This document shows, piece after piece, positions 3,304-45,801 of a stretch of 45,801 nt of DNA (positions are counted from its first letter, which is position 1; every line of letters begins with the position of its first letter). The notes below the pieces were generated by a model, which did no database searches, had not been told where the DNA came from, and saw only the letters and a program-made list of their open reading frames with translations. Source of the stretch: Allofranklinella schreckenbergeri. GTDB lineage: Bacteria > Pseudomonadota > Gammaproteobacteria > Burkholderiales > Burkholderiaceae_C. A program made the translations under genes and the position numbers. Location: the NCBI RefSeq assembly GCF_003703475.1, contig NZ_RDQM01000016.1, forward strand, positions 1 through 45,801, read 5' to 3'.

Positions 3304-4394
3304 ATATCGAAAGAATTATTGGCGCAGGCCCACTGAAAGTTAAGTACAAAATTATTAGCGACGTCGATTTTTTATACGGAAATATTTGCTTTGTTTATGA
3401 TGGAGTGGAAATTGGCGATTACGATGATATCGTCAACTTAAATGACGTGCACGACTGGCTAAATGATTTTTCACAAAAAAAAGAGATGCGAAATATTGGT
3501 TTTTTAAATGGCGAACCAAAAGAATCGCTGCTTAATTTTATATATTTCCAAATAGTGACGTTTATGACTCCAGAATGTGATTTTGACAGCTACGAAAGTC
3601 CGCCATCATTGACCCTTTATCGAATGAATGATATATTTCATTTGGATGATAATTTGTCCTACTCTTTCTTGGATAAATTTTTTGGCATTTTGTTTGATGA
3701 TTTTTCAATAAACAAGCAAAGATTTATATGGGGTTCCTGGAAAGATAGAGTGCCTCACGAAATTTTGCTGAGCACTGGATATTTTGAGGATTTGATATCT
3801 GAATTTTCATCTTCGTTTATGAGTTCTTATCCATACAAGGCCCGCAAGAATAATGATATAAACAAAAAAAACGGAATATTGGAAAACGTGATTGGTTGTG
3901 GATGTTTGAAATTTAAATATAAAGTCTCTGATAAAAGTAAAGCGATTGGAAATTTTTGCATTAAAAATAAAGATATGGAAATTGGCAATTACAGAAGCTC
4001 TGTAAATTTAATGAATCTGAGTGCGAGATTGAATGAATTTTCTGAAAAGAAAAATAAAAGATTTATAGGATTTTTGGATGGAGATTCTTCCGTGGATATA
4101 TTTAATTTTATTTATGCGCAAACAGTTGACTCGAAAAACGGCTTGGAGCAGGATGGCCTTTCATCGCATCTTGCATGCAAAATGAGAGAAATTTTTTATT
4201 TGAGTGATTGTTTTTCTTCGTCTTATTTTCGAAAACATCATTTGATTCTATTTAATGATAGATTGATTAAAAAGCAGAGACTTATATGCTTTAGACAGGA
4301 GGATGAGGTTCTGCACGATTTTTTGCTTGAGCAGGATTATTTTGAAGAACTGGTGATGGATTTTTCTAGATCGCTGCATGAGTCGTTAAAATAG
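3300..4394 (+). CDS. duplicated-domain immunity-like protein of the Rhs tip
   Basis: A 364-residue, AT-rich gene that starts with GTG overlapping the Rhs stop (GTGA), the standard place for the immunity gene of a polymorphic toxin. The protein is two tandem copies of one domain of about 170 residues. IERIIGAGPLKVKYKI..GNICFVYDGVEIGDY near the N-terminus repeats as LENVIGCGCLKFKYKV..GNFCIKNKDMEIGNY from about residue 197. IGFLNGEP/IGFLDGDS, NFIYFQIV/NFIYAQTV and GYFEDLI/DYFEELV also pair. The pattern loosely resembles Imm42-type immunity proteins, which I cannot confirm. Its low GC contrasts sharply with the housekeeping genes and indicates transfer. The role as immunity is inferred from position and composition. 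Confidence 0.75.
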   Translation: MNIERIIGAGPLKVKYKIISDVDFLYGNICFVYDGVEIGDYDDIVNLNDVHDWLNDFSQKKEMRNIGFLNGEPKESLLNFIYFQIVTFMTPECDFDSYESPPSLTLYRMNDIFHLDDNLSYSFLDKFFGILFDDFSINKQRFIWGSWKDRVPHEILLSTGYFEDLISEFSSSFMSSYPYKARKNNDINKKNGILENVIGCGCLKFKYKVSDKSKAIGNFCIKNKDMEIGNYRSSVNLMNLSARLNEFSEKKNKRFIGFLDGDSSVDIFNFIYAQTVDSKNGLEQDGLSSHLACKMREIFYLSDCFSSSYFRKHHLILFNDRLIKKQRLICFRQEDEVLHDFLLEQDYFEELVMDFSRSLHESLK

Positions 4395-4593: not shown

Positions 4594-4800
4594 ATGCGCC
4601 TTATTGTCCTCACCATCATCGCCCTTTTCCTTGTTCTGGGCATCAAGCACTGGCGCCAGAGCCGGGATCCGCTGGCCCATGCCACGGCATCAGCTCAGGG
4701 CTTCGTGTCAGTGCCCATGCCCGATGGCGCTGTCCCGTCCGCTGTCCGCCGACACTTCTCCGACTGCTTTCAACCCCGTTTTTTCACAAAACGGGGCTGA
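4594..4800 (+). pseudogene. small membrane-anchored protein truncated by the 120-bp repeat
   Basis: The ATG at 4594 opens a frame with an N-terminal hydrophobic helix (MRLIVLTIIALFLVLGIKHW) and then SRDPLAHATASAQGFVSVPM, a plausible start of a small envelope protein. At about codon 47 the sequence becomes the 120-bp repeat, and the last 22 codons are simply repeat sequence read through to a stop at 4800. This indicates that the original gene was cut when the repeat arrived or when recombination joined it there. I recall similar N-termini in Comamonadaceae hypothetical proteins but cannot name a function. Confidence 0.45.
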
Positions 4801-4853
4801 AACCCACAGTTGCGCGCGCCATCACGGCATCCGCACGTGTGATTTCTTCTCTT
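4734..4853 (+). repeat. 120-bp dispersed repeat, copy 2
   Basis: About 93% identical to 2169-2288 with no gaps. It includes a perfect hairpin CCCCGTTTT-TTCAC-AAAACGGGG at 4774-4796. It interrupts the small membrane-protein gene on its left and is followed by the broken transposase on its right. Confidence 0.8.
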
Positions 4854-4951
4854 TTCGCGCTATTTCTTGCTCGATCCCGCCCCAACAGGCGCGTTGATCC
4901 CTTGCGCTACGCACAAACCAGCGGACAGTTCTGTGAAGCGGCTTGTACGCT

Positions 4952-5545
4952 TTAACGCCTGATCCAATAACCGCAAAGCACGCCATCCAGGGTTTGCACA
5001 AGCAGCGCGTCCCGTGCGCCCCGATGGAGATCTTCTGGTACCAGCCCAGCCCAAGCTTCTTTGGGCGTCAAGCCCTTGAGGTTTTGGTGCGGAAGCACAT
5101 GGTTGTAAAACCAGGCGGCTTCCTGAAGAACGTTTTGCACATCCGCTGTGCTTTGATGAACCAGCTGCCGCAGCCAAGGCTTGATAGCGCCGAAGAATCG
5201 CTCTATCCGTCCATTGCACCAGGGCGCACAAACAGGCGTGGTTTGTTTGCGAATGCCCACCAGTTTCAGGAATGTGGTGAACACGAAGCTGTTGAAAGAT
5301 GGCTTCGTTGTCCGTGCGCACCGCTCGGGGCTTACCATGCTGACCAATGGCCAGGCATAGGTGACCCAACAGTGTCCAGCTGCGTTTGTTGATCAGCGTG
5401 GTGAGCCGAACGCACAGCCGCGAGCCGTGATCGAGAATGCCCAGGCATGCTTGCGGTTTGCCACATGCGGCAACAAGGTTCAAATCCATGACCCAGACGG
5501 CATGCCTATCCAGCCTTTTGCCATCAATCAGTTCGAGCCCGCGAC
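4952..5545 (-). pseudogene. frameshifted DDE (rve-type) transposase
   Basis: Minus-strand remnant of an integrase-core transposase. The upstream part reads VWVMDLNLVAACGKPQACLG, LDHGSRLCVRLTTLINKRSW and KPRAVRTDNEAIF. After one extra base near 5294 the frame changes and continues NSFVFTTFLKLVGIRKQTTP, CAPWCNGRIERFFGAIKPWL and FYNHVLPHQNLKGLTPKEAW to a stop at 4952. These are the conserved blocks around the catalytic Asp, Asp and Glu of rve transposases, with NGRIERFFG holding the last Glu. The N-terminal DNA-binding part is missing, so the gene is dead in two ways. It probably belongs to the same family as the element at 1-217 and shares its orientation. Confidence 0.85.
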
Positions 5546-5593
5546 AGACAGGAAGTAACCGGGTATGCCGAGCTGATGGACTTGATGTTCCGG

Positions 5594-5818
5594 GTATAGG
5601 AAGGCACTCCATTCAACGGAAACCACGTCAAACAGTTGCGCCAGATCCTGCCGCAATGGCCAGAAGGACGAGTGGCATCGTGGCATTACAAAACCAACTG
5701 GAACAGCGTTGCAGCCATTGATGAGAACGGCGCGCTGATTGGCATCTCCTTCGAAGCGCGTCGCCCCATTCGACACGCCTTGCGGGCCGTTTGCGTGTGC
5801 TTGGGCCTATGCACATAG
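5594..5818 (+). pseudogene. unrecognised coding fragment
   Basis: One plus-strand frame reads EGTPFNGNHVKQLRQILPQW, PEGRVASWHYKTNWNSVAAI and DENGALIGISFEARRPIRHA to a stop at 5818. The composition (Trp, Asn, Asp, Gly in ordered runs) looks like real protein and not an antisense shadow. There is no start codon with a ribosome binding site and the left end runs into the transposase remnant. I do not recognise the family. Its place among toxin/immunity modules makes an immunity remnant possible. Confidence 0.35.
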
Positions 5819-6035
5819 ACTACAGACTGCGCCCATCATGCTTTTCCCTCGCTTCCGGATGCGCGATCTCGATACGAGCAGGATGAAACCTTAGAAACTG
5901 CAAGATGGAAACCTTGGTTAAATAAAAAACACGACTTGGACCCAGGTCGTATCGGGAAAAGAAATATGACGGATGATATGAAGAAAACTTCTTCAGCCAG
6001 TGCAGTTCAACTTTTTCATCTCTTTATGATTAGTT

Positions 6036-6530
6036 ATGCCTAAAGACAAATCACCTGAAGATATTTTTTGGAGTTTCTATGATAACCACGAAAAATGGAG
6101 CAATGACTTTGTCACCGAAATAAACCATCAATATTCGATTCTAAGCAACGAAAACAAAATAAATGTCTCCATAGGCTTTCACAGAGTTGTGCTAAATTTA
6201 CAAAGACAAGAGCTGTACGATCTTTGCAGAATTTTCAACAATGGATACTGTGGAGATGACAGATTCTCTTATTTTGCAAGGTCCATGATTTATCTTGGAA
6301 AATATTATTGTGAAAAATTGATTGAAAGCCCAGATTTATTTTTCTTCTTGGCCCTAGACAGTGGGTGGGGCGATTACGGATTCTGGATTGAAGATTTCGG
6401 AGAGCTTGAAAATAATGATTTTTGCGTAATGCATGACTCTCCAGAATTTGAATTTATAAAAAAATCCGAATCAGAATTAAACAAAGAATACCCCCTAACA
6501 TCCGCCTTCTGTCATTCAAAAAAGTGTTGA
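6036..6530 (+). CDS. DUF4240-like protein, candidate orphan immunity gene
   Basis: A 164-residue AT-rich gene. The central segment NNGYCGDDRFSYFARSMIYL and GKYYCEKLIESPDLF follows the DUF4240 pattern as I remember it (Gly-x-Cys-x-Asp-Asp-x-Phe, Phe-x-x-Trp/Ile-x-x-x-Gly, then Pro-Asp-x-Leu). The N-terminus has the matching FWSFYDNHEKW helix. DUF4240 proteins are often found beside polymorphic toxins. No toxin gene is attached here; the gene stands alone between a dead transposase and the third repeat copy. Low GC relative to the core genes points to acquisition. No strong ribosome binding site precedes the ATG, so expression is uncertain. Confidence 0.55.
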   Translation: MPKDKSPEDIFWSFYDNHEKWSNDFVTEINHQYSILSNENKINVSIGFHRVVLNLQRQELYDLCRIFNNGYCGDDRFSYFARSMIYLGKYYCEKLIESPDLFFFLALDSGWGDYGFWIEDFGELENNDFCVMHDSPEFEFIKKSESELNKEYPLTSAFCHSKKC

Positions 6531-34357: not shown

Positions 34358-37300
34358 ATGCCCATCCCCCCTCCATTACGCCACCGCTCCTTGAGCGCTG
34401 CTGCCCTGAGTCTGGCGCTGGTTCTTGCTGCCCAGGTCGCCAGCACCGCCACCCAACCCGCTGCGCCTGCCGCATCGCCCATCAGCGTCGCCACCTGCGT
34501 CGCCCAGCCCCTGCCCAGCGGCTGGCAGGACATCCAGGCCGTCTACCTCGCCTTCTACCTGCGCCCCGGCGACCCCGCCGGGCTGCGCTACTGGGCAGAA
34601 AAAGCAGGAGGCGACATCACCACCATCCTGGCCGACTTCGGCCACTCCGCAGAAGCCAAGCGCCTCTACGGCGACATCACGCCAGAAACCATCGGCGATG
34701 CCATCGACAAGATTTACCAGGCCCTCTTTGGCAAAGCCCCCGACGCCCCCGGCAAACAACACTACATCGACGGCTACCGTGACGGGCGCTACAGCGCCGC
34801 CGACCTGGCCTACCGCATCCTGCAAGGCGCGCAAAACGACGACAAACGCGCCATCGAGCACAAACTGGCCGCCGCCGACTTCTTCACCCGCACCGTCGAT
34901 ACCGACCTGGACGGCAAAGACCAGCAAGTCACCTATGTGCAAAAAGACGAAGAAACCGTGCGCCAATGGATGCGCAGCATCACCGCCGCCAGCGCACCCA
35001 CGCCCGAGCAAGCACGCCAATTCGTGCGCGACCACGTCGCCGCCGCCAGCGACCCCCTGCGCAGCCAGCCCCAGCCCAAACCTCGCTGGCTCAGCCTCAC
35101 TCCCGGCCAAGCCCCAATCGGCCAAGCCACCCGCTTCACCATCCGGGGCCAACACCTGCCCAGCACCGCACGCCTGAACATCGGCGACGCCCAATGCGAC
35201 GCCCCCGCGCAAGTGCAATGCAACGGCAGCGGCTTCACCCAAAACTGCACCTTGGGCGGCGATGCAGGCAAACGCACCATCACCGTGCAAATCGCAGAAG
35301 GCGGCCAGGCCATCGACCGCAAAACCATTCAAGTCACCAGCCCGGCCCCCAACCCTGAACCGCAGCCGCCCCAACCCACCCCCATCCCCAAACTCGACAG
35401 CATCATGCCCTGGCGCGTCGCGCTCGGGCATGCCACCGTCTTTACCGTCAAAGGCCGCGATCTGCCCGCCACGGCCACCCTGCAAATCCCCGAAACCCGC
35501 TGCACAGCCCCCACCGACGTGCAGCCCGATGGCAGCGGCTTCAAGCAAAGCTGCACCCTGAGCGGCCAGCCAGGCCAACGCCCCGCGCGCGTGCGCACCG
35601 ATGAGCAGGCCAACGGCGGCACACTCATCGACGGCGTCTATACCGTGACCGCCGAATCGCTCACACCGACGCCGCCTGCACCGACGCCGCCCGCGCCGCC
35701 CATCACCCCCACTCCCCCCACCGGCCCTGGTCAACGCGATCTTTCCGTCTTCGAGCAAGCCAGCGCGTTGCCGCGCTTTCTCAGCCATCCGCAACTGGCA
35801 GCGCGCGTCGGCCAGCCTTGGCAGTATCAGGTCAGCGCGGCGGATCGCGAGGGCCAAAGCCTGCCCGTGCACATCGTGGCCGCGCACAGCCCGGCGGGCC
35901 TGCACATCAGCGGCAGCGCGCCCGATCAAACCCTGCACTGGACGCCGCCACAGGCGGGCCTGCACACCATCACCTTGCAAGTGCGGGATGCGCAAGGCCA
36001 GGTGCAGCAGCAAAGCTTTGTACTGGGCGTGAGCGACGAAACCCGCCTGCCCGCCGACCCCAAACAGCGCGCCACGCCCCTGCCAGAGCACGTCTTCACC
36101 CCGTTTGCCGATAGCACGCGCTTTCTCTACACCGGCGCCGACCCCATTCAGCAAGGCGTGAGCGCCCCCATGGATCCGCTGCACGCGGCCGTGCTGCGCG
36201 GCCAGGTCAAGGGCCGCGATGGCGCGCCGCTGGCGGGCGTGCGCGTGCAAGTGCAGGGCCGCCCGGAATTCGGCCACACCCACACCCGCGCCGACGGCTG
36301 GTTCGACCTGGCCGTCAACGGCGGCGGCTGGCTCACGCTGCACTACGAGAAGACCGGCTACCTCAGCGCCCAGCGCAAGGTGCAAACGCCCCGACGCAAC
36401 TGGGCCTATGCCGATGACGTGACGCTCATCGCTCTGGACGGCCAATACAGCCAGATCGACCTGCAACGCAACGAACTGCAAATCTACTGGGGCGGGCTGA
36501 ATCAGGACGAACGCGGGGCGCGGCGCACCGCCGTCGTCTTCCCCGCAGGCGTGCAGGCCAGCGCCGAGCTGCCCGATGGCAGCCTGCGGCCCTTGCAACG
36601 CCTGACGGTGCGCGTGACCGAATACACCTTGGGCGAGCAAGGCCCGCAAACCATGCCCGGCGCGCTGCCGCTGTCGGTGGGCTACACCTGGGCTGCCGAC
36701 TTTTCTGCCGACGAAGCCCGCGCCCTGGGCGCGCGCCACCTGCGCTTTGACCGCCCCGTGTACGCCTACACCAGCAACTTCATCGGCGCGCCCGTGGGCA
36801 CGGCCGTGCCTGCGGGCTGGTACGACTTTGAGCGCACGGCCTGGATTGGCGCGGACAACGGGCGCGTGATCGAAATCCTGGGCATCGAGAACGGCCGCGC
36901 CCAGTTACGCGTCAGCCAGGCCCAGCGCCCGGCCACAGCCGCCGAGCTGGCGCAACTGGGCATTGGCGAGGACGAGCTGCAAGCCCTGGCGCAGATGTAC
37001 CCGGTGGGCGAGCAGCTCTGGCGCACCCCGATGGCGCACTTCACCCCTTGGGATTGCAACTGGCCCTGGGGGCCGCCCAAGGACGCCTCACCGCCGCCCG
37101 ATGACGATCCGCCAGATCCCAATGATCCTTCTGGCCCCGGAAGCTCTCCGCCCGACCCCGGCGACCCGGACAACGAGGAACAGGACGAAGAGCACGAAGA
37201 CGTGGAATGCGGCTGCGACATCTACGTCAAGCAGCGCGCCGTGGGCCAGGGCATCGCCCTGCCCGGCACCCCCTTTGAGCTGTATTACCGTAGCGACCGC

Positions 37301-40300
37301 CCCCTGACCGATCCAACGGCGCCCCATCCCACCGTACCGCTGCGCAAGAGGCTTAAATCACCAGAAGCCTCCCTGCATGCCAATTTTCGCTATGCCGAGG
37401 TGCAGCACCAAATCGCGGGCCATCGCCTGCTGCAAAGCTGGGATCCTGCGCAATGGGTCGCTGCAACGCAATTCGTGGAACAGCAATGGAATGGCACCGA
37501 CATCTATGGTCGACCCGTCCGCACCGCCTTTGCACAGCTGCACAGCAGCGTCGCCTATGGCTATGCCGGGGTGTATTACAGCGTCAGGGCCGACTTCACC
37601 CGCGCTTTCGAATCTATCCAGCTCGCAGCAGGCGGGGAATCCAGGCTCTCTTTTGCAGGTGACAGGAGTGCTGCCAGCCCGACCATTAAGCTTCACCTCG
37701 ACTCAGCGCCACGCTGGATCAAAGTGCCCACAGCCAATCCGGACCTTGCCCAGGCCCACGCCGGCGGCTGGGCCCTGCGCGGCCTGCGCCTGTACGACCC
37801 CGAGGCGCAAATCCTCTACGAATCGGGCAGCCTGCGCAAAGGGCGGCGCCTGCCGCCGAGCACGCAAACCGTGCCCAATGCGCACATCGCCAGCGGCAAT
37901 GCCCGCCTGCTCAGCGATGGCGCGCTGCTGGCCAGCCAGGGCCACCAGTTGCAACGCTACGCCGACACCCAGGGCACGGCTGCGCCCACCGTGTACGCCG
38001 GCCAGGCCGAGGCCGGCTTTGCCGGCGACGGCGGCCCGGCCAGCGCCGCCCGTTTTGACCGCCCCCGCGTGCTGGCGCAAGGGGCGGACGGCAGCATCTA
38101 CGTCATGGATGCGGGCAACCACCGCCTGCGCCGCATCGGCCCCAATGGCCTGGTGCACACCGTGGCTGGCAATGGCCAACCCACCCCGGTCAACTCGCCC
38201 TGGGATCAGCCCGTAGTCGCCACGGCCAGGGGCTTTGACGCCCAGTCGCTGGCGGCCCTGCCCGACATGAACCTGCTGGCCGTGGACAAGCAGGGCCAGC
38301 TGCTGCAACTGACGCCCGGCGGCCTGCTGCACCGCATTGATCTGCCGGAAGGAGCCGGCCTGGCCACGAACGTCGTTGCAGGCCGCCAGGGCCAAGCCTG
38401 GATTGCCACCAACACCGGCCAACTGTACCGGCTTGATGCCGCAAGCCTGCGCCATGTGGGCGATGCACTCCATTTCCCCGGCGCTGTGGCTGGTCCAGGC
38501 GATGAGGTGCTCGTGCCCATGGGCAGCCAAGTCTGGCGAGTCAAAGCCTCCGGCAGACGGCAGTTGCTTGTCCATGCGCAGCAAAATGAACTGCGCCACG
38601 ACACCCTGCTGGGCTACGCCCCCGATGCCGGCCTGCTCAGCCTCTCCAACACCCGACTGCTGCGCACCTCTGCCGGCTTGCCCCAGCTCGGCTCCAGCCA
38701 GGCCGCTTACCGGGTCGGCCGCCCCGACGGACTGAGCTACGACGAATTCTTCGGCAACGGCCTGCCCAGCGCCACCAGACACGCCTTGACCGGCGCCACG
38801 CTGGCCCGCTACAGCTACCAGGGCGGCTACCTCAACAGCGTCAGCGACGCCTTTGGCAACACCGTGCAACTGCAACGCCAAAACGCACGACTGGTGCGCG
38901 TAGTGGGGCGTGATGGCCAGGTCAGCACGCTGGATTACGACGCTCAAGGCCGCCTGGCCCGTGTCACCCTGCCCGGCGGCATCACCCACCGCATGCGGTA
39001 CGACGAGCGCGGCCTGCTCACCGAATACCACGACCCGCGCGGCGGCATAGATCGCTTCAGCTACGACGCGCAAGGCAAGCTGCTGCGCAACACCGCCCCC
39101 GATGGCAGCGGCTGGCAACTCAGCCGCGCCGAGGACAACACCATCACCGCCACCACCGCCATGGGCCGCAGCAAAAGCGTGCGCCAACTGGCGAAAGGCC
39201 CTATCACCGAGCAAATCCGCATCGGCTTTGATGGTCTGCGCTCCAGCACCGTCATCGACACCGTATGGGGCCAATCCACACAAGAGCACCCCGATGGCAC
39301 AAGCATCCAGCGCCAGCGCATTCCGGACCGCGTTTTTGGCAGCATCGCGGCCACAGAGAACATCGACCTTCACAACGACTCCCTTCACCTGTACAGCAAC
39401 ACCAATCGCTCAGGCCACTGGAACGGACAGCACTACACCAGTTGGAACAGCGCCAGCACATCCAACGACGCCACCTGGCGCAGCCAGTTCAGCCATGCCG
39501 ACATGCAACTGCGCCACACCGATGCCGACGGCCACAACACCGACATCGCCGTCAACGCCCAAATGCAACCATTGCACTGGCACACCGCCAGCGGCGCGTA
39601 TGCCACGCTGGGCTACGACAGCCGTGGTCAACTGGAGGACGTCCGCCTCTCCGCCCCAGACGTGCCCGAGCGCCGCAGTCACATCGCCTATCACCCGCCG
39701 GGCCAGCCCGGCGCAGGCCAAATCGCCCGTTTCACCAACGCCCTGGGCCAGTCCACCCATTACCGCTACGACCCGGCCGGCCGACCCGCGCAAACCACCC
39801 TGCCCGATGGCCGCAGCATCCGCTACGACTGGGACGCCGCCAGCAACCTGCGGGGCCTGCACACCCCGGCGGGCAACCACCACCAGTTCCACCACAACAG
39901 CGCCCAGCAAGTGGGCCGCTACGACGCTCCAGGCAGCGCTACCACCACCCACTGGCAATACGATGCCGAGCGCAAGCTCACCAGCGTGCGTCGCCCCGGT
40001 GGGCAGGACATCCGCCTGAGCTACGACAGCGCCGCGCGCCCCAACCGCATCACCACCGATGCCGATACCACCACCCTGAGCTACAACGCCCTGGGCCAGC
40101 TCGCCAGCACCGGCAACGCCACCCAGCGCATCACCTACGAGCGCAGCAATGGCCTGATCACCAGCGAGCACTGGGAAGGCGCCATCCAGGCCCGGCTCGA
40201 CACCCCCACCGACAGCCGCGGCCGCCCCACCGAAATCGGCCTGCTTGCGGGCGCCGAGCACATCCAACTGCCGCTGCACTACAGTCCATCAGGGCGCTTG

Positions 40301-42253
40301 CAGCGCATCGACCAAACCTGGCTGCACTACGGCGCGCACGGCCAGCCCGTAAGCCTGCATGGCCCCTGGGGCAGCATCACCCACCAATACAACGGTCTGG
40401 GCGAGAGCCTGCACACCCGGCACATCGCCAGCGCCAATACCGCCCAGCCCCAGGCCGAAGCCACCCGCCAGGCCCTGCTGGCCGGGCTGGGCGCGCTGCA
40501 AGGCGCGCTGGACGAGCGCATACGGCAGATGAACACCTGCCGCCTGCGCGGCTGGCAGGTTCATGGCCTGCTGCCCGGCAGCTCGGAAATCATCGACTGG
40601 CACTGGCAATACGACCGCAGCGACATGGACGAGGTCGAGCGCCAGGAACTGATCGCCCAATACGGCCCCGCCCAATACCGCGAGCCCGACTACTGCCTGG
40701 ATGTCGTCAAGCGCCACATCGAGCATCTGCACTACCTCGCCCAAGCCCCGCTCTCACCCTACGGCTGGGGCGAACAACTCGCCAGCGAGCTGACCCGCTT
40801 GCAACAAGCCACCGCAGGCGGCGCTGCGGGCGTGGCCAGCCTGAGCTACAGCAACGATGCCGCCGGTCTGCTCACCGACGCCACCAGCTACAACAGCCCC
40901 GCCATTGAGGCCCATTACCAGGCTTTGCAGCAACTGCTCCAGCAGTTGCAGGCCAACCAGTTGCACTGGGGCATCCCTGCCGAATACCAATACCAGCGCG
41001 ACGCCCTGGGCCGCATCAGCAGCTTGCATGAGCGCCTGCTTGACCAGCAGCGCCAGCACCACTACGAATACGACAGCAGCGGTCGCCTGCTGACGCATAC
41101 CGTAGACGGCCAGCGCACGGAGTGGGCCTACGACGCCAATGGCAACCGCACCCATAAAAACGGCCAACCCATAGCCAGCTACGACGCGCAAGACCGGCTG
41201 CTGACCTGGAAAGACCAACACTACAGCTACAGCCCAGCGGGCGACCTGCAAGCCAAAACCAGCGCCGCAGGCCAGACCCGCTACGACTACGACGCCCTGG
41301 GCAACCTGCGCCAAGTGCTGCTGCCCGGCGGCCAGCGCATCGACTACGACATCGACCCCCTGAACCGCCGCATCGGCAAGCGCAAGAACGGGCAGCAGCA
41401 ATACCGCCTGATCTACCTGGACGACCTGCGCCCCCTGGCCGAACTGGACGCCCAAGGCCAGCTGCGCAGCCTGTTCATCTACGCCGGCCAGGGCAACGCC
41501 CCCACCCTGATGCTCAGGGAAGGCAAAACCTGGCGTCTGATCGCCGATCATCTGGGCAGCATCCGCCTGGTCATCGACGCCGAGACGGGCCAGATCGGCC
41601 AGCGCATCGACTACGACGCCTGGGGCCGCGTCACCCACGACAGCCAGCCGGGCTTCCAGCCCTTTGGGTTTGCGGGCGGCCTGTACGACCCAGACACCGG
41701 CCTGACCCGCTTTGGGGCAAGAGACTACGACGCAGAAACGGGCAGATGGACGGCCAAGGATCCCATTCTGTTCGATGGTGGGGATTCCAACCTCTATGGG
41801 TATGTTTTGCAGGATCCGGTGAATTTTGTGGATCCGAGTGGATTGGCGAATAGCGGTTGGAGAGGACCACGCTTAATTCCTTATTCGGAATGGAGAGAGC
41901 CGACTCCTGTGATGATTTGCTTCAGACCTGTGGATATCGATGGTTTAGGATTTATTAGAAAATTTATTCCATATCACGCATGGATAAAAACCCCAAACCT
42001 AGAGGCAGGCATGGGAGGCGAATGTGAAATCCCAGGCCAACAGTGCTCAGACAAACCATACAGTCAGACGGTGGTGAAGGATCACTCTGGACAATCTGAA
42101 TCTGACGATGCCTCGTGCATACCGACGTCACCCACCATCGACATAGATTGCGTAGAGAGAAAAATTTCAACAGGCCAGCCTACAGGTAGGTGGACGCCTC
42201 TCAATCAATGCCAATCTTTCGCCTACAGCGTGATTGATTCGTGCAGGAGGTAG
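34358..42253 (+). CDS. Sec-exported Rhs/YD-repeat polymorphic toxin
   Basis: A 2631-residue protein preceded by AAGGAG seven bases before the ATG. Order, by approximate residue: signal peptide 1-30 (LSAAALSLALVLAAQVAS); DUF4214-like repeats 54-170 (LAFYLRPGDPAGLRYWAE, YQALFGKAPDAPGKQHYIDG); two IPT/TIG-like domains 242-330 and 341-434; Pro-rich linker; Ig-like domain 475-560; carboxypeptidase-regulatory-like domain 608-695; acidic Asp/Pro linker 905-945; NHL-like repeats 1213-1350 (AEAGFAGDGGPASAARFDRP, DAGNHRLRRIG); YD repeats 1480-2380; Rhs core end 2358-2497, closing DPVNFVDPSGLA. The variable tip is 2498-2631. It contains YHAWIKTP (His2540) and NQCQSFAYSVIDSC (Cys2618), a His-then-Asn-x-Cys order like LRAT/permuted NlpC-P60 peptidases, so a cell-wall or lipid-directed amidase is plausible but inferred. 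There is no PAAR domain, so type VI delivery is not indicated. Confidence 0.92.
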   Translation: MPIPPPLRHRSLSAAALSLALVLAAQVASTATQPAAPAASPISVATCVAQPLPSGWQDIQAVYLAFYLRPGDPAGLRYWAEKAGGDITTILADFGHSAEAKRLYGDITPETIGDAIDKIYQALFGKAPDAPGKQHYIDGYRDGRYSAADLAYRILQGAQNDDKRAIEHKLAAADFFTRTVDTDLDGKDQQVTYVQKDEETVRQWMRSITAASAPTPEQARQFVRDHVAAASDPLRSQPQPKPRWLSLTPGQAPIGQATRFTIRGQHLPSTARLNIGDAQCDAPAQVQCNGSGFTQNCTLGGDAGKRTITVQIAEGGQAIDRKTIQVTSPAPNPEPQPPQPTPIPKLDSIMPWRVALGHATVFTVKGRDLPATATLQIPETRCTAPTDVQPDGSGFKQSCTLSGQPGQRPARVRTDEQANGGTLIDGVYTVTAESLTPTPPAPTPPAPPITPTPPTGPGQRDLSVFEQASALPRFLSHPQLAARVGQPWQYQVSAADREGQSLPVHIVAAHSPAGLHISGSAPDQTLHWTPPQAGLHTITLQVRDAQGQVQQQSFVLGVSDETRLPADPKQRATPLPEHVFTPFADSTRFLYTGADPIQQGVSAPMDPLHAAVLRGQVKGRDGAPLAGVRVQVQGRPEFGHTHTRADGWFDLAVNGGGWLTLHYEKTGYLSAQRKVQTPRRNWAYADDVTLIALDGQYSQIDLQRNELQIYWGGLNQDERGARRTAVVFPAGVQASAELPDGSLRPLQRLTVRVTEYTLGEQGPQTMPGALPLSVGYTWAADFSADEARALGARHLRFDRPVYAYTSNFIGAPVGTAVPAGWYDFERTAWIGADNGRVIEILGIENGRAQLRVSQAQRPATAAELAQLGIGEDELQALAQMYPVGEQLWRTPMAHFTPWDCNWPWGPPKDASPPPDDDPPDPNDPSGPGSSPPDPGDPDNEEQDEEHEDVECGCDIYVKQRAVGQGIALPGTPFELYYRSDRPLTDPTAPHPTVPLRKRLKSPEASLHANFRYAEVQHQIAGHRLLQSWDPAQWVAATQFVEQQWNGTDIYGRPVRTAFAQLHSSVAYGYAGVYYSVRADFTRAFESIQLAAGGESRLSFAGDRSAASPTIKLHLDSAPRWIKVPTANPDLAQAHAGGWALRGLRLYDPEAQILYESGSLRKGRRLPPSTQTVPNAHIASGNARLLSDGALLASQGHQLQRYADTQGTAAPTVYAGQAEAGFAGDGGPASAARFDRPRVLAQGADGSIYVMDAGNHRLRRIGPNGLVHTVAGNGQPTPVNSPWDQPVVATARGFDAQSLAALPDMNLLAVDKQGQLLQLTPGGLLHRIDLPEGAGLATNVVAGRQGQAWIATNTGQLYRLDAASLRHVGDALHFPGAVAGPGDEVLVPMGSQVWRVKASGRRQLLVHAQQNELRHDTLLGYAPDAGLLSLSNTRLLRTSAGLPQLGSSQAAYRVGRPDGLSYDEFFGNGLPSATRHALTGATLARYSYQGGYLNSVSDAFGNTVQLQRQNARLVRVVGRDGQVSTLDYDAQGRLARVTLPGGITHRMRYDERGLLTEYHDPRGGIDRFSYDAQGKLLRNTAPDGSGWQLSRAEDNTITATTAMGRSKSVRQLAKGPITEQIRIGFDGLRSSTVIDTVWGQSTQEHPDGTSIQRQRIPDRVFGSIAATENIDLHNDSLHLYSNTNRSGHWNGQHYTSWNSASTSNDATWRSQFSHADMQLRHTDADGHNTDIAVNAQMQPLHWHTASGAYATLGYDSRGQLEDVRLSAPDVPERRSHIAYHPPGQPGAGQIARFTNALGQSTHYRYDPAGRPAQTTLPDGRSIRYDWDAASNLRGLHTPAGNHHQFHHNSAQQVGRYDAPGSATTTHWQYDAERKLTSVRRPGGQDIRLSYDSAARPNRITTDADTTTLSYNALGQLASTGNATQRITYERSNGLITSEHWEGAIQARLDTPTDSRGRPTEIGLLAGAEHIQLPLHYSPSGRLQRIDQTWLHYGAHGQPVSLHGPWGSITHQYNGLGESLHTRHIASANTAQPQAEATRQALLAGLGALQGALDERIRQMNTCRLRGWQVHGLLPGSSEIIDWHWQYDRSDMDEVERQELIAQYGPAQYREPDYCLDVVKRHIEHLHYLAQAPLSPYGWGEQLASELTRLQQATAGGAAGVASLSYSNDAAGLLTDATSYNSPAIEAHYQALQQLLQQLQANQLHWGIPAEYQYQRDALGRISSLHERLLDQQRQHHYEYDSSGRLLTHTVDGQRTEWAYDANGNRTHKNGQPIASYDAQDRLLTWKDQHYSYSPAGDLQAKTSAAGQTRYDYDALGNLRQVLLPGGQRIDYDIDPLNRRIGKRKNGQQQYRLIYLDDLRPLAELDAQGQLRSLFIYAGQGNAPTLMLREGKTWRLIADHLGSIRLVIDAETGQIGQRIDYDAWGRVTHDSQPGFQPFGFAGGLYDPDTGLTRFGARDYDAETGRWTAKDPILFDGGDSNLYGYVLQDPVNFVDPSGLANSGWRGPRLIPYSEWREPTPVMICFRPVDIDGLGFIRKFIPYHAWIKTPNLEAGMGGECEIPGQQCSDKPYSQTVVKDHSGQSESDDASCIPTSPTIDIDCVERKISTGQPTGRWTPLNQCQSFAYSVIDSCRR

Positions 42254-42254
42254 T

Positions 42255-42500
42255 ATGAAAAAGATTTTTACCTCCCTTATTATTATTATTGTTGGATTAT
42301 TTGGTTTTTATATAGCCTACTTTTACGCCTGGCTAATCACCGCCAGCCCCAATATAAATGAAGCCATTAAGACACGTTACGAAACCATTGCCTCCATGCT
42401 TGCTCCATTATCATTATTTATAATAATAATTGGATTTTTTATATTCATTCGATCCGCGCTAAAAATAATCAAAAATAAAAATCCGAATAAAAATCAGTAA
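42255..42500 (+). CDS. two-helix membrane immunity-like protein
   Basis: An 81-residue AT-rich gene whose ATG lies one base after the Rhs stop, with AGGAGG (42245-42250) inside the Rhs end as ribosome binding site. The protein has two hydrophobic helices ([20 protein letters not shown] and about residues 50-68, [18 protein letters not shown]) and a Lys/Asn-rich cytoplasmic tail. Position and composition are those of an immunity gene. A membrane location suits a toxin acting in the periplasm or at the envelope, consistent with the amidase-like tip. I recognise no named family. Confidence 0.75.
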
Positions 42501-42555
42501 AACCTGCCCATTCCCAACCCAGCGCGATGATCCATCATTCGTGTCAGCACCGGTA

Positions 42556-43068
42556 CGAATCGGGCCAGATCGGCCAACGCATCGACTACGACGCCTGGGG
42601 CCGCGTCACCCACGACAGCCAGCCGGGCTTCCAGCCCTTTGGGCTTGCGGGCGGCCTGTACGATCCAGACACCGGCCTGACCCGCTTTGGCGCAAGAGAC
42701 TACGACGCAGAAACGGGCAGATGGACGGCCAAGCACTAGGCCCGGTGGTCGGCGGCGTAGCCGCGTGTGTGCTTGCTGGTGTATGTACTTTCAATGAAAA
42801 GGATGAATCCAATTCATCTGAACCTACTCCCCCAGTTCCTATTCCTGAAGATTGGAAGGGCGATACCTGCCCCGCTCCCGATTGGACTTGGTCTGGACCA
42901 GATGAGCCGGGTGGAGAAAGAGGAGCGTGGATATCTCCCGATAAAAGACATAGCTACCATGCCGATAACGATCACCCACCGCCAATAGGGCCTCATGTAG
43001 ATTGGAACGACAAGTTGGGTAATCGACGTTGGCGGATATTTCCTGACGGAAAAATAGAACCGAAGTGA
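42556..43068 (+). pseudogene. orphan Rhs tip 1 with type 37-like toxin domain, frame-broken
   Basis: Bases 42556-42732 repeat the Rhs core of the complete gene (from 41586) with only a few changes: [20 protein letters not shown] to [12 protein letters not shown]. The rest of the core (DPILF to DPSGLA) is then missing, the core frame stops at 42737-42739, and the toxin tip runs in another frame to 43068. The tip reads GGVAACVLAGVCTFNEKDES, then WKGDTCPAPDWTWSGPDEPG, ADNDHPPPIGPHVDWNDKLG and RIFPDGKIEPK. The HPPPIGPHxDW and FPDGxIEPK pattern matches what I recall of polymorphic toxin type 37, a predicted nuclease. It has no start and is silent unless recombined. Confidence 0.85.
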
Positions 43069-43079
43069 GACTCTAAATC

Positions 43080-43784
43080 ATGACAGAATTTTTTCAAAAA
43101 AAAATGGATACTACAAATCATTTCCCATATGAAATGGTTGAACTCGATTTCCAGAAAACCCATAAATGGGCACTTGATAAATTAATCAACGGCCCTTCTC
43201 TTGGAGTATCAAGAAAATTATCCCGTAAACTAACAAAAAATAATTTTTCATTTATCACATTCTTACCCAATAAAACCCCAATATTATCAATTTATAGCTT
43301 CAAGCATTCATTTGGCGACTTCTCCTATGAATCAGAATGGAGAATGATTAATTTTTTAAAATCAAAAGGAAAGTCAAAAAATATTTTACTTTGCGAAGAT
43401 TGGACTATGCAGCGCAGTGCTCTGAATTTTCAAAATGGAGTATGGCATGATCATAATTTTAAGGAAAAAATTTTATTGCAAGACGAAGATTTCTACTGCT
43501 ACGCCACCATAGACGAATTTCTTGCATGGAAAGTCCCATCTAAGCTAAATGGCTCCGCTTGCTACACATTTCAAGGATTTTTATTAAATAAAGAAATTAT
43601 TATAAAAAACCAAGAAGTAGCAAATGATTTTATATCACATCTTATTGAAAATATAGAAGCAATTTTGTTTTTTGGCGTTTACGATGGAGAGGGTTGTATA
43701 GCAGCAATTAATCACAATAAAATAAATGGCGACAATCGTGAAAATCAGACTCGCCCACGCATAAATGCTGATACAGGGAAATAG
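43080..43784 (+). CDS. immunity-like protein for orphan tip 1
   Basis: An AT-rich frame of 234 residues beginning 12 bases after the orphan tip 1 stop. No signal peptide or membrane helix is seen; segments include [40 protein letters not shown] and [21 protein letters not shown] do not recognise the family. Immunity is inferred from location and base composition. The last seven residues (INADTGK) are encoded by the start of the next Rhs core repeat (43761 onward), so the natural C-terminus was probably different and the gene's 3' end is a recombination scar. Confidence 0.6.
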
Positions 43785-44470
43785 GCCAACACATCAACTA
43801 CAACGCTTGGGGCCAGATCACCCACGACAGCCAGCCGGGCTTCCAGCCCTTTGGGTTTGCCGGTGGCCTGTACGATCCAGACACCGGCCTGACCCGCTTT
43901 GGGGCAAGAGACTACGATGCCGAGACGGGCAGATGGACGGCCAAGGATCCCATTCTGTTCAATGCGGAGACACCAACCTCTATGGCTATGTGTTGCAGGA
44001 TCCGGTGAACCTCAAAGACCCCAATGGCCTCATCGCACCCGCCATTGCGATAGGGATCAGAGTTGTCGGAGGTATTGCCGCAGGGAGCGTCATTAGAGTA
44101 GGTGCCGCTCGGGTGTCAGCTTCCCACATCAGTAGATTTATAGCTTGTGTATTAGTCGGGTCTTGCACTTTTAACGAAGACGCAAATGAAATCCCTGATC
44201 CAAATGATGTTGTTCCCGGGGGGGCCGTGGGAACCTAATCCAACTAATAGAAAGGGGAACTTCCTTGGACCCAAAGAGCCCGGTGGCGGGCGTTCTCAAT
44301 GTCAGTGGGTTCCTCGCTTCGGAGAAGGTGGTCCTCCTGGCAGTGAAGGTTACTGGAAAGTCAATACTCACGGGAAAAAGGGATGGATCCGTTTTAATAG
44401 AGAAGGAAACCCTATAACTCCCGAACAAGCACACCTTGGATTGAATTCCATGAAAGGAATTTTCAGATGA
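43761..44470 (+). pseudogene. orphan Rhs tip 2 with three frame breaks
   Basis: Rhs core sequence starts at 43761 (INADTG for IDAETG). One base is lost near 43784 (before [10 protein letters not shown]) and another near 43962 ([21 protein letters not shown]). After the core end DPNGL comes a tip with ACVLVGSCTFNEDANEIPDP, similar to orphan 1. A run of seven Gs at 44218-44224 then shifts the frame; with six Gs the tip continues GGPWEPNPTNRKGNFLG, SQCQWVPRFGEGGPPGSEGY, WKVNTHGKKGWIRFNREGNP and ITPEQAHLG to 44470. The pattern YWK...GxxGWxRFxxxGNPITPEQAH looks like a known secreted-toxin tip type, which I cannot name. No start codon or promoter is seen. Confidence 0.82.
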
Positions 44471-45003
44471 ATCAAGTCCTTATGTATTACGACTGCGAAG
44501 TCATAGATTTTCTATCTTCTTCGGGCTTTACAATCCTGAAAAACGGAGTAATAAAACCATCAAAACAAAAGCATGATGAAAAATCATCCTCCTACTACCC
44601 GAATCTAAACGCCATCAATCTTTATGCATTATGTCGCGAAATTTCAAAATGGCTTAATCCTCACGATTTTTTTGTATTCTGTATAGACAATTACACTCCA
44701 ATAATAGAGGACGAGGTAGAAATAATTAATTCCATACTTGGAGAGAAATCAAATTTCAAAAAAACAAATGGGGCAATAGTAAGAAAAGATCCGAAAATAG
44801 AAAATCACATAATATCAAGTCTATCCCTGACGGTTTATTTTTCTTTAATTTTCTGCTGGAATTCATATTTATTTTCAGACAAAACAACAAAAAGAAGGAT
44901 TGAATTAAAAGATGGGGTTATTATTTTTTATGAAAATGAAAAATCCAATGAAAGCAGCGCCGCCATAATTAAAAAATTTCAGCCATACGATAATCAAATG
45001 TAG
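44467..45003 (+). CDS. immunity-like protein for orphan tip 2
   Basis: A 178-residue AT-rich gene whose ATG overlaps the orphan tip 2 stop (ATGA), as expected for toxin/immunity coupling. The protein is soluble-looking, with YDCEVIDFLSSSGFTILKNG, NAINLYALCREISKWLNPHD and SSLSLTVYFSLIFCWNSYLF, the last being hydrophobic enough for one membrane segment. The family is not recognised. The overlap keeps it in register with the intact (six-G) reading of the tip, supporting the idea that the toxin decayed while the immunity gene stayed open. Confidence 0.65.
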   Translation: MNQVLMYYDCEVIDFLSSSGFTILKNGVIKPSKQKHDEKSSSYYPNLNAINLYALCREISKWLNPHDFFVFCIDNYTPIIEDEVEIINSILGEKSNFKKTNGAIVRKDPKIENHIISSLSLTVYFSLIFCWNSYLFSDKTTKRRIELKDGVIIFYENEKSNESSAAIIKKFQPYDNQM

Positions 45004-45105
45004 TTTCTAGAGGTTGTTATGGACTTTGTCGACAAGCAGTACTGGATTTGGGTACAAGGCCAACCTGTCTCGTGAGCCTCAAAATTAAAGGGCTTAGAAA
45101 AGAGC

Positions 45106-45665
45106 AGAGTGGGCCTATGACGCAACGGCAACCGCACCCACGAAAACAGCCAGCCCATCGCCAGCTACGACGCGCAAGACCGGCTGCTGGCCTGGAAAGA
45201 CAACCAGTACACCTACACCCCTGCTGGCGATTTGCTGACCAGAACGTCCCCGCAGGGCCAGACCCGCTACCAATACGATGCCCAGGGCAACCTGCGCCAG
45301 GTGTTGTTGCCTGGCGGCCAGCGCATCGATTACGAGATCGATCCTTTGGGTCGCCGTATCGGCAAGCGCAAGGACGGGCAGGTGCAATACCGCCTGATCT
45401 ACCTGGACGACCTGCGCCCCCTGGCCGAACTGGACGCCCAAGGCCAGCTGCGCAGCCTGTTCATCTACGCCGGCCAGGGCAACGCCCCCACCCTGATGCT
45501 CAGGGAAGGCAAAACCTGGCGTCTGATCGCCGATCATCTGGGCAGCATCCGCCTGGTCATCGATGCCGAAACGGGCCAGATCGGCCAGCGCCTCGACTAC
45601 GACGCCTGGGGCCGCGTCACCCACGACAGCCAGCCGGGCTTCCAGCCCTTTGGGTTTGCGGGCGG
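45106..45665 (+). pseudogene. orphan Rhs core 3, cut by an insertion element
   Basis: Reads WAYDA, then after one lost base near 45122 NGNRTHENSQPIASYDAQDR, RYQYDAQGNLRQVLLPGGQR, IDYEIDPLGRRIGKRKDGQV and on to [17 protein letters not shown] at 45665. Bases from about 45388 are almost identical to 41401-41665 of the complete Rhs gene. At 45666 it changes abruptly into the end of an insertion element, so any tip beyond is separated from it. It has no start and is not expressed as a full protein. Confidence 0.85.
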
Positions 45666-45801
45666 TGTATTGACCTAGTGAAAACCTGCTCAGGAGTTAA
45701 CGTTGAAGGAAACGACGATGAGCACCCTGATGGAAGACGACATCAAGCGCTGGACGGCCAAGCGTAAAACGGCCCTGGTCCTGGACATCATCCAAGGCAA
45801 G
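45666..45801 (+). mobile_element. IS3-family-like insertion element, left end
   Basis: The Rhs homology stops at 45665 and the sequence becomes TGTATTGACCTAGTGAAAAC, with TG as the outermost bases as in IS3-family ends. A transposase orfA follows. The element runs off the window, so its right end and target duplication cannot be seen. Confidence 0.65.
45718..45801 (+). CDS. transposase OrfA (DUF1153-type), partial
   Basis: The first 28 codons of an open frame: MSTLMEDDIKRWTAKRKTAL then VLDIIQGK. I recognise this as the start of the DUF1153-containing OrfA of an IS3-type element, whose N-terminal helix-turn-helix binds the element's ends. The start has GAAGGA about eight bases upstream. The rest lies beyond the window. 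Confidence 0.7.
   Translation, partial: MSTLMEDDIKRWTAKRKTALVLDIIQGK

What the first reader, a model, noticed from the sequence alone, without database searches (positions are those of the whole stretch)
41400..45801. Rhs toxin-tip archive: one complete gene and three orphan cores sharing long near-identical blocks
The complete Rhs gene is followed by three displaced pieces of its own core (42556, 43761, 45106). Two carry a different tip plus an AT-rich immunity-like gene. Blocks of roughly 170-270 bp are nearly identical between the complete gene and the orphans, enough for homologous recombination to place another tip behind the intact N-terminus. Orphan tips behind rhs and cdiA genes are known; a three-step array with graded decay closed off by an insertion element is a readable history.
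Basis: partly seen in the sequence, partly recalled or inferred. Interest (0 to 1): 0.8.

Follow-up and report, generated by a model that had tools for sequence, protein, structure and literature searches.

The report
Teneurin-like toxin with stored tips
A bacterium's giant toxin gene, a bacterial cousin of the animal nerve receptors called teneurins, is followed by a row of leftover toxin ends with their own protection genes, a known arrangement seen here behind an unexpected kind of toxin.

Summary
The repeats are real: three displaced pieces of the main gene's core follow it at 90-98% DNA identity. The reading needs three corrections. (1) The insertion element does not close the array. The contig ends inside a multi-copy element that sits within the third orphan core. 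Contig C29 starts with the element's other end, the same 4-bp duplication, the rest of that core, and three more orphan modules before an aminotransferase gene. A sister genome carries the ileS side, this gene's start, its own array and the same aminotransferase on one contig. I count six orphans, not three. (2) Decay is not graded: the three nearest orphans are visibly broken, the three distant ones read in frame from core into tip. (3) The main gene is a bacterial teneurin-like protein (best PDB match 'Teneurin-Like Protein', E about 1e-228), not a T6SS Rhs; the T6SS sheath family was found in 0 of 3 genomes. Mosaic cores record recombination. Orphan tip arrays are known for rhs and cdiA. 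I found none described behind teneurin-like toxins, yet 8 of 33 usable loci have one.

The parts
34358..42253 (+). Main gene, a 2631-codon bacterial teneurin-like protein (signal-like N-terminus, DUF4214, TIG, teneurin TTR-like, NHL, YD-shell, Rhs-associated core, tip 0)
   Evidence: Open frame; Pfam and NCBIfam; PDB teneurin-like proteins 9ifo and 9pt5 at E about 1e-228 with colinear stretches. Signal peptide by eye only.
41101..41838 (+). 3' part of the main gene's core that recurs in the orphans
   Evidence: BLASTN and alignment of 13 core units
41840..42253 (+). Tip 0, the attached C-terminal tip
   Evidence: Lies after the Rhs-associated core; 42% identical to the orphan-5 tip on C29; relatives at the ends of Rhs-type proteins in 2 other of 399 genomes. 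Toxic activity is inferred.
42255..42500 (+). Putative immunity gene 0, 81 aa, 30% GC, membrane-protein-like
   Evidence: Open ORF; only weak hits to membrane families below cut-off
42561..42733 (+). Orphan 1 core fragment, 97.7% to main
42734..43068 (+). Orphan 1 tip, out of frame with its core after an internal deletion; weak Ntox37 match
   Evidence: Core frame ends at 42739, tip frame is 42541-43068; Ntox37 18 bits, cut-off 27.8
43080..43784 (+). Putative immunity gene 1, 234 aa, 32% GC
   Evidence: Open ORF; no family match
43781..44009 (+). Orphan 2 core fragment, 90% to main
44010..44470 (+). Orphan 2 tip, split over two frames
   Evidence: ORFs 43765-44238 and 44186-44470; no family match
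44467..45003 (+). Putative immunity gene 2, 178 aa, 31% GC
   Evidence: Open ORF; no family match
45107..45665 (+). Orphan 3 core, left part: orphan-type sequence, then main-type sequence from about 45384-45397 (main 41398-41411)
45666..45801 (+). First 136 bp of a multi-copy insertion element inserted in orphan 3; the contig ends inside it. Four-base target duplication 45662-45665.
   Evidence: Other copies at the ends of C13 and C3; other end and same four bases on C29

Best explanation
A polymorphic-toxin locus: one full-length bacterial teneurin-like protein with its current tip and immunity gene, followed by six displaced core-tip-immunity modules, three of them (from the second half of orphan 3 on) on contig C29. 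Shown: the core repeats, seven tips of which two are one family, seven open putative immunity ORFs, the insertion element within orphan 3, and mosaic cores that record recombination. Inferred: the main protein leaves by a Sec-type signal and is displayed at the surface; a new tip-immunity cassette enters by homologous recombination in the core and pushes the old tip downstream; the old immunity genes persist and protect against relatives that still use those tips; an orphan tip can now and then be reloaded. I judge the array to be mainly a record of past tips kept for their immunity genes, with reloading as a secondary use.
For: Core repeats at 87-98% over 150-570 bp. C8 and C29 share the only matching 4-bp duplication among 3 left and 4 right element ends read, and their flanks are adjacent parts of the core. 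G008 has the locus on one contig. Main versus orphan 3: 49 of 277 differences left, 3 of 282 right of main 41398, 0 of 2000 shuffles as extreme; at sites where main and orphan 6 differ, orphan 3 has 23 orphan-type, 7 main-type and 1 other on the left and 41 of 41 main-type on the right. 7 of 7 immunity ORFs open while orphans 1-3 are broken in core or tip. Teneurin-like match. Same arrangement in 8 of 33 usable teneurin-like loci.
Against: No transcription, toxicity or immunity was tested. Intact immunity ORFs against broken tips is not significant (chance 0.12 to 0.05 for 5 to 7 events, with approximate tip lengths). No excess of promoter-like sites (7 found, 6.0 expected). Four other main-versus-unit comparisons have their strongest break at 41522, which may be uneven constraint, and 4 of the 12 pairs tested gave no strong break. 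The attached tip and most others match no named toxin family. Short-read drafts can misplace repeated cores.
Confidence: 0.75

Rival explanations
1. Weapon reserve: the orphans are kept mainly so that recombination can place another tip behind the intact N-terminus.
For: Long near-identical blocks; orphan 3 mosaic with main-type sequence; main/orphan recombination over 522 bp at 95% was selected in Salmonella (PMC3967940, passages); orphans 4-6 still read in frame into tips.
Against: Orphans 1-3, the nearest, have broken cores or tips, and the shared tips 4 and 6 each differ in length between the two genomes so that one copy ends early. No orphan tip of this window was seen attached to a main gene in G008 or G009.
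Confidence: 0.15
2. Neutral debris: old tips are leftovers under decay, with no benefit from either tip or immunity gene.
For: Deletion, frame breaks and an insertion element in orphans 1-3; no promoter excess.
Against: 7 of 7 immunity ORFs are open in this genome and 3 of 3 checked in G008; arrays recur in 8 of 33 teneurin-like loci.
Confidence: 0.07
3. The orphans on C29 belong to a second locus and are not linked to this gene.
For: The element has several copies (3 left ends, 4 right ends), so the element alone does not fix the join.
Against: Among the ends read only C8 and C29 share a 4-bp duplication and their flanks are adjacent parts of one core. G008 has ileS-side and aminotransferase-side sequence on one 29,857-bp contig, though it is a MAG.
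Confidence: 0.03

Closest known systems
rhs loci with displaced C-terminal tips (Jackson et al. 2009, PMC2935791; passages seen) and orphan rhs-CT/rhsI and cdiA-CT/cdiI modules (Poole et al. 2011, PMC3150448; passages seen)
   Same: Full gene followed by core-tip-immunity fragments, some frame-broken; arrays up to eleven modules and mobile-element interruption (both in cdi loci) are reported
   Different: Those are enterobacterial rhs and two-partner CdiA systems; here the carrier is a teneurin-like protein in a Comamonadaceae-related genome with no T6SS sheath gene found
Recombination of main and orphan rhs in evolved Salmonella (Koskiniemi et al. 2014, PMC3967940; passages seen)
   Same: Block length and identity are similar (there 522 bp at 95%; here up to about 570 bp at 87-98%)
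   Different: There switching was observed in culture; here only past mosaics are seen
Bacterial teneurin-like proteins (PMC13018210, 2026; abstract, sections 6, 10, 12 and passages read)
   Same: FN-plug, NHL and YD-shell in order, variable C-terminal domain, immunity gene just downstream
   Different: The main text uses 'orphan' and 'recombination' 0 times and the parts read describe one downstream immunity gene; here six further modules follow. Its Gram-negative members are predicted lipoproteins (section 6), which the N-terminus here does not look like (by eye).
Immunity-gene arrays by sequential displacement in Vibrio cholerae T6SS (PMC5361080; abstract and start of the introduction seen)
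   Same: Old immunity genes remain when effectors are replaced
   Different: There the arrays are of immunity genes; here core and tip fragments remain as well

Membership tests
Bacterial teneurin-like protein | FN-plug, NHL and YD-shell adjacent and in order in one frame | tested here: met
   phmmer against 9ifo gives colinear stretches over all three regions in one open frame. The published profiles themselves (E 1e-10 each) were not available; Pfam Teneurin NHL is below its cut-off, 20.2 against 27.1 bits.
Bacterial teneurin-like protein | Variable C-terminal domain with an immunity gene next to it | tested here: met
   Sister G009 has another tip at 88% main-gene identity; an open 81-aa ORF follows tip 0. 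Function not tested.
Bacterial teneurin-like protein | Secretion signal | tested here: inconclusive
   Signal-like N-terminus by eye; no predictor available
Orphan tip/immunity array of Rhs/CDI type | Core fragments identical in kind to the main gene's core, each with its own tip | tested here: met
   tips differ, except tips 0 and 5, 42% identical
Orphan tip/immunity array of Rhs/CDI type | Small ORF after each tip | tested here: met
   7 of 7 open ORFs
Orphan tip/immunity array of Rhs/CDI type | Tips are toxic and neutralised by the adjacent gene | not testable with these tools
T6SS-delivered Rhs effector | PAAR domain at the N-terminus | tested here: not met
   Not among 15 Pfam and 5 NCBIfam families with E up to 1
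T6SS-delivered Rhs effector | T6SS in the genome | tested here: not met
   VipB (PF05943) in 0 of 3 genomes; G000 is 99% complete, G008 80%, G009 77%; control E. coli positive. Other T6SS genes not searched.

The most novel reading that the evidence does not exclude
Bacterial teneurins, relatives of the ancestors of animal teneurins, diversify their toxic C-termini by cassette displacement and keep displaced tips with their immunity genes in arrays; this occurs in several phyla, and new tips enter at the gene-proximal end while older modules sit distally.
Probability: 0.4. Interest if true: 0.6.

Novelty: new variant of a known kind. Interest (0 to 1): 0.45.

Why it matters
Animal teneurins are thought to derive from bacterial toxins with interchangeable C-termini (PMC13018210). 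A locus that shows how a bacterial teneurin changes and archives its tips points to the genetic mechanism of that variability, and its modules are candidate toxin-immunity pairs to test. It also shows that array length read from a draft contig is a lower bound where a repeated element breaks the assembly.

Tried and rejected
Rejected: the insertion element as the end of the array. Rejected: T6SS delivery. Rejected: graded decay; identity to main tends to fall with distance (97.7, 90.0, 91.1, 88.9, 89.0, 87.5% for orphans 1 to 6) but breakage does not follow it.

Led nowhere: family names for most tips and immunity proteins; a PDB sequence match for the tip 0/5 family (one hit, E 0.15); promoter and terminator scan (7 and 4 found against 6.0 and 4.8 expected); scan of genome contigs with tip 0 (no relative); tip 4 in 399 genomes of the family (only this genome; the sister G008 has it, so it was evidently not among those drawn). 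Structure prediction of tip 0 from a single sequence (collected) gave mean pLDDT 30.6 and is useless; no fold search was made.

Weakened: 'distal modules are old and vertical', because tip 4 (first 80 codons) plus immunity 4 have 0 synonymous changes in about 112 sites against 60 of 785 in three flanking genes, which also fits recent exchange. The fourth gene (first 300 codons of the main gene) was compared without gaps and is not used. A G+C-rich DNA search of 399 genomes matched 137, nearly all by short stretches; only 5 besides this genome reached E below 1e-40.
Full report
What is there. The window is the whole of contig C8 of a 2.82-Mb draft genome (30 contigs, 99.34% complete). The main gene is 34358-42253, 2631 codons. 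The end of its core recurs three times downstream in the window: 42561-42733 (97.7%), 43781-44009 (90.0%) and 45107-45665 (91.1%); the last 280 bp of the third are 99% identical. E-values run from 5.9e-86 and 3.7e-82 to 0, so chance is excluded. The same core is found again on contig C29 at 128-275 (95.3%), 1134-1681 (88.9%), 2375-2828 (89.0%) and 3493-4065 (87.5%).

The array does not stop at the insertion element. C8 ends 136 bp inside the element. Contigs C13 and C3 end at that same base of the element, the usual sign of a collapsed multi-copy repeat. C29 begins with the element's last 127 bases, which are also found in C26, C14 and C16. The four bases before the element in C8 equal the four bases after it in C29; none of the other ends read (C13, C3; C26, C14, C16) gives such a match with C8 or C29, or with each other. 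The two flanks match adjacent parts of the core in the main gene. C29 then carries the rest of orphan 3 with its tip and immunity ORF, three more orphans, and an aminotransferase gene at 4746-6143. In the sister genome G008 (MAG JAUMYU010000028.1, Comamonadaceae) one 29,857-bp contig holds the start of ileS, the start of this gene, an array and the same aminotransferase gene; from the last core outward the two genomes are 95.2% identical over 14.9 kb. I therefore count six orphans. Of 10 genomes of the genus, only this one, G008 and G009 have core-sized matches; G002 has a 31-bp match and 6 have none.

What the main gene is. Pfam gives RHS repeats, Teneurin YD-shell (102.2 bits, cut-off 50), Teneurin TTR-like (83.1, cut-off 27), DUF4214 (23.8, cut-off 23.2) and TIG (21.6, cut-off 20.9); the Teneurin NHL model scores 20.2 against a cut-off of 27.1. 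NCBIfam gives the Rhs-associated core. The best solved structures are two entries named Teneurin-like protein (9pt5, 9ifo), E about 1e-228 with the whole protein and 3e-230 with residues 515 onward, where nine stretches cover the FN-plug, NHL and YD-shell regions in order. The best T6SS-labelled Rhs structure scores 1.7e-27. No PAAR domain was listed, and the T6SS sheath family VipB was found in 0 of 3 genomes, two of which are only 77-80% complete. A type II secretion gene is present. The N-terminus looks like a Sec signal peptide by eye; no predictor was available.

Tips and immunity genes. Seven tips are each followed by an open ORF of 81 to 234 aa with 30-44% GC, against 59-73% GC in 300-bp windows over 36000-41549 of the main gene. 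Tip 0 and the orphan-5 tip are one family, 42% identical. It was found in 3 of 399 genomes of the family, this one included; the other two copies follow Rhs-type sequence, and one of them (L127) is followed by a small ORF that looks membrane-spanning by eye, as do immunity ORFs 0 and 5 here. The other copy (L128) lies too near a contig end to tell. The orphan-1 tip has a weak Ntox37 match below cut-off (18 against 27.8 bits); immunity 6 is a DUF4288 protein (62.5 bits, cut-off 27), and so are the immunity ORFs of tips B and 6 in G008. No other tip or immunity protein of this genome reached a curated cut-off in its tip or immunity part. Tips of orphans 1, 2 and 3 share a stretch before the variable end (by eye; 78 bp at 93.6% between orphans 1 and 3).

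State of the orphans. Orphan 1 has an internal deletion that leaves its tip out of frame with its core; orphan 2 is split over frames in core and tip; orphan 3 is interrupted by the element. Orphans 4, 5 and 6 read in frame from core into tip, though tip 4 here ends in another frame than the sister's copy, and the sister's tip 6 ends early against the copy here. So breakage is not graded with distance. All 7 immunity ORFs of this genome are open, as are the 3 checked in G008 with known starts (a fourth stretch tried there used guessed coordinates and was not in frame). The chance that 5 to 7 breaking events all fall outside immunity genes is 0.12 to 0.05, with approximate tip lengths: suggestive at most.

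Signs of recombination. Main versus orphan 3 gives 49 of 277 differences left and 3 of 282 right of main coordinate 41398, with 0 of 2000 shuffles as extreme. At 72 sites where main and orphan 6 differ, orphan 3 is orphan-type at 23, main-type at 7 and neither at 1 up to 41397, and main-type at 41 of 41 beyond. Four other comparisons with main have their strongest break at 41522, which may be uneven constraint; the orphan-3 break lies elsewhere, in front of a stretch where orphans 4-6 do differ from main. Of 12 pairs tested, 8 had at most 1 of 2000 shuffles as extreme; the other four had 18, 68, 415 and 437. Two G008 units also look mosaic.

Sister comparison. G008 has four core units: tips A and B, then the tip-4 and tip-6 modules in the same order as here, without the tip-5 module between them. 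A search of G008 and G009 with 41843-45105 matched only cores, so tips 0 to 2 were not found there (both genomes are incomplete). G008's main gene is collapsed: its first 319 codons run straight into core sequence and a stop; in a MAG this could be a misjoin. G009 (MAG JAUMYI010000168.1) has a main-gene fragment at 88% and another tip before its contig ends. Tip 4 (first 80 codons) and immunity 4 show 0 synonymous changes in about 112 sites, while three flanking genes show 60 in 785, so this module may have been exchanged since the genomes parted. Two genomes cannot establish that new tips always enter at the proximal end.

How general. Of the 78 named loci with a related core, 40 hold an FN-plug-like ORF. 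In 2 of these (L066, L073) that ORF lacks the core, and 5 more (L029, L035, L045, L083, L084) have under 1.5 kb downstream; both groups are set aside. Of the remaining 33, 8 have at least one further core downstream of the ORF: L074, L075, L077, L087, L091, L098, L099 and L100, with 1 to 5 orphans each. In all 8 the main gene and at least one orphan match at DNA level, best match 67-93% (L073 was run there too). The closest relatives outside the genus, L030 (Delftia MAG) and L031 (Comamonas odontotermitis), have none in about 9.5 kb. These loci were picked by core similarity and are not a census; most are MAGs.

What is known. Displaced rhs tips with core repeats and broken fragments were described in 2009 (PMC2935791, passages); orphan rhs and cdiA modules, cdi arrays of up to eleven and mobile-element interruption in 2011 (PMC3150448, passages); main/orphan recombination in culture in 2014 (PMC3967940, passages); cassette replacement leaving strings of immunity genes in 2012 (PMC3482391, passages); immunity arrays by displacement in Vibrio in 2017 (PMC5361080, abstract and start of introduction). 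Bacterial teneurin-like proteins as polymorphic toxins with a downstream immunity gene were described in 2026 (PMC13018210; abstract, sections 6, 10, 12 and passages); its main text uses 'orphan' and 'recombination' 0 times, and an earlier review does not use 'orphan' either (PMC6425310, term search). I saw no paper on orphan arrays behind teneurin-like toxins in the listings, in a library that lacks most subscription journals.

Verdict. The repeats are real. The array is of a known kind; its teneurin-like carrier, and the recurrence of such arrays behind these toxins, are the new part.

Noticed in passing
L025:612-1628 (G008): The sister's main gene is collapsed: 319 codons run straight into core sequence and a stop, a loss of about 5.8 kb, or a MAG misjoin.
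   Followed up: no
window 42734-43068 and 44010-44235; L009:280-470: Tips of orphans 1, 2 and 3 share a stretch before their variable ends, a possible second recombination point.
   Followed up: partly
L091:780-15380: A Bacteroidetes MAG has a teneurin-like ORF followed by five orphan cores, the longest array among the named loci.
   Followed up: partly
L025:3556-3891 and 5733-6092; L009:4233-4592: Two different tips (B and 6) are followed by immunity ORFs of one family, DUF4288.
   Followed up: partly
L032:129-5018: A Curvibacter MAG contig carries four core copies but is cut off before its main gene.
   Followed up: no
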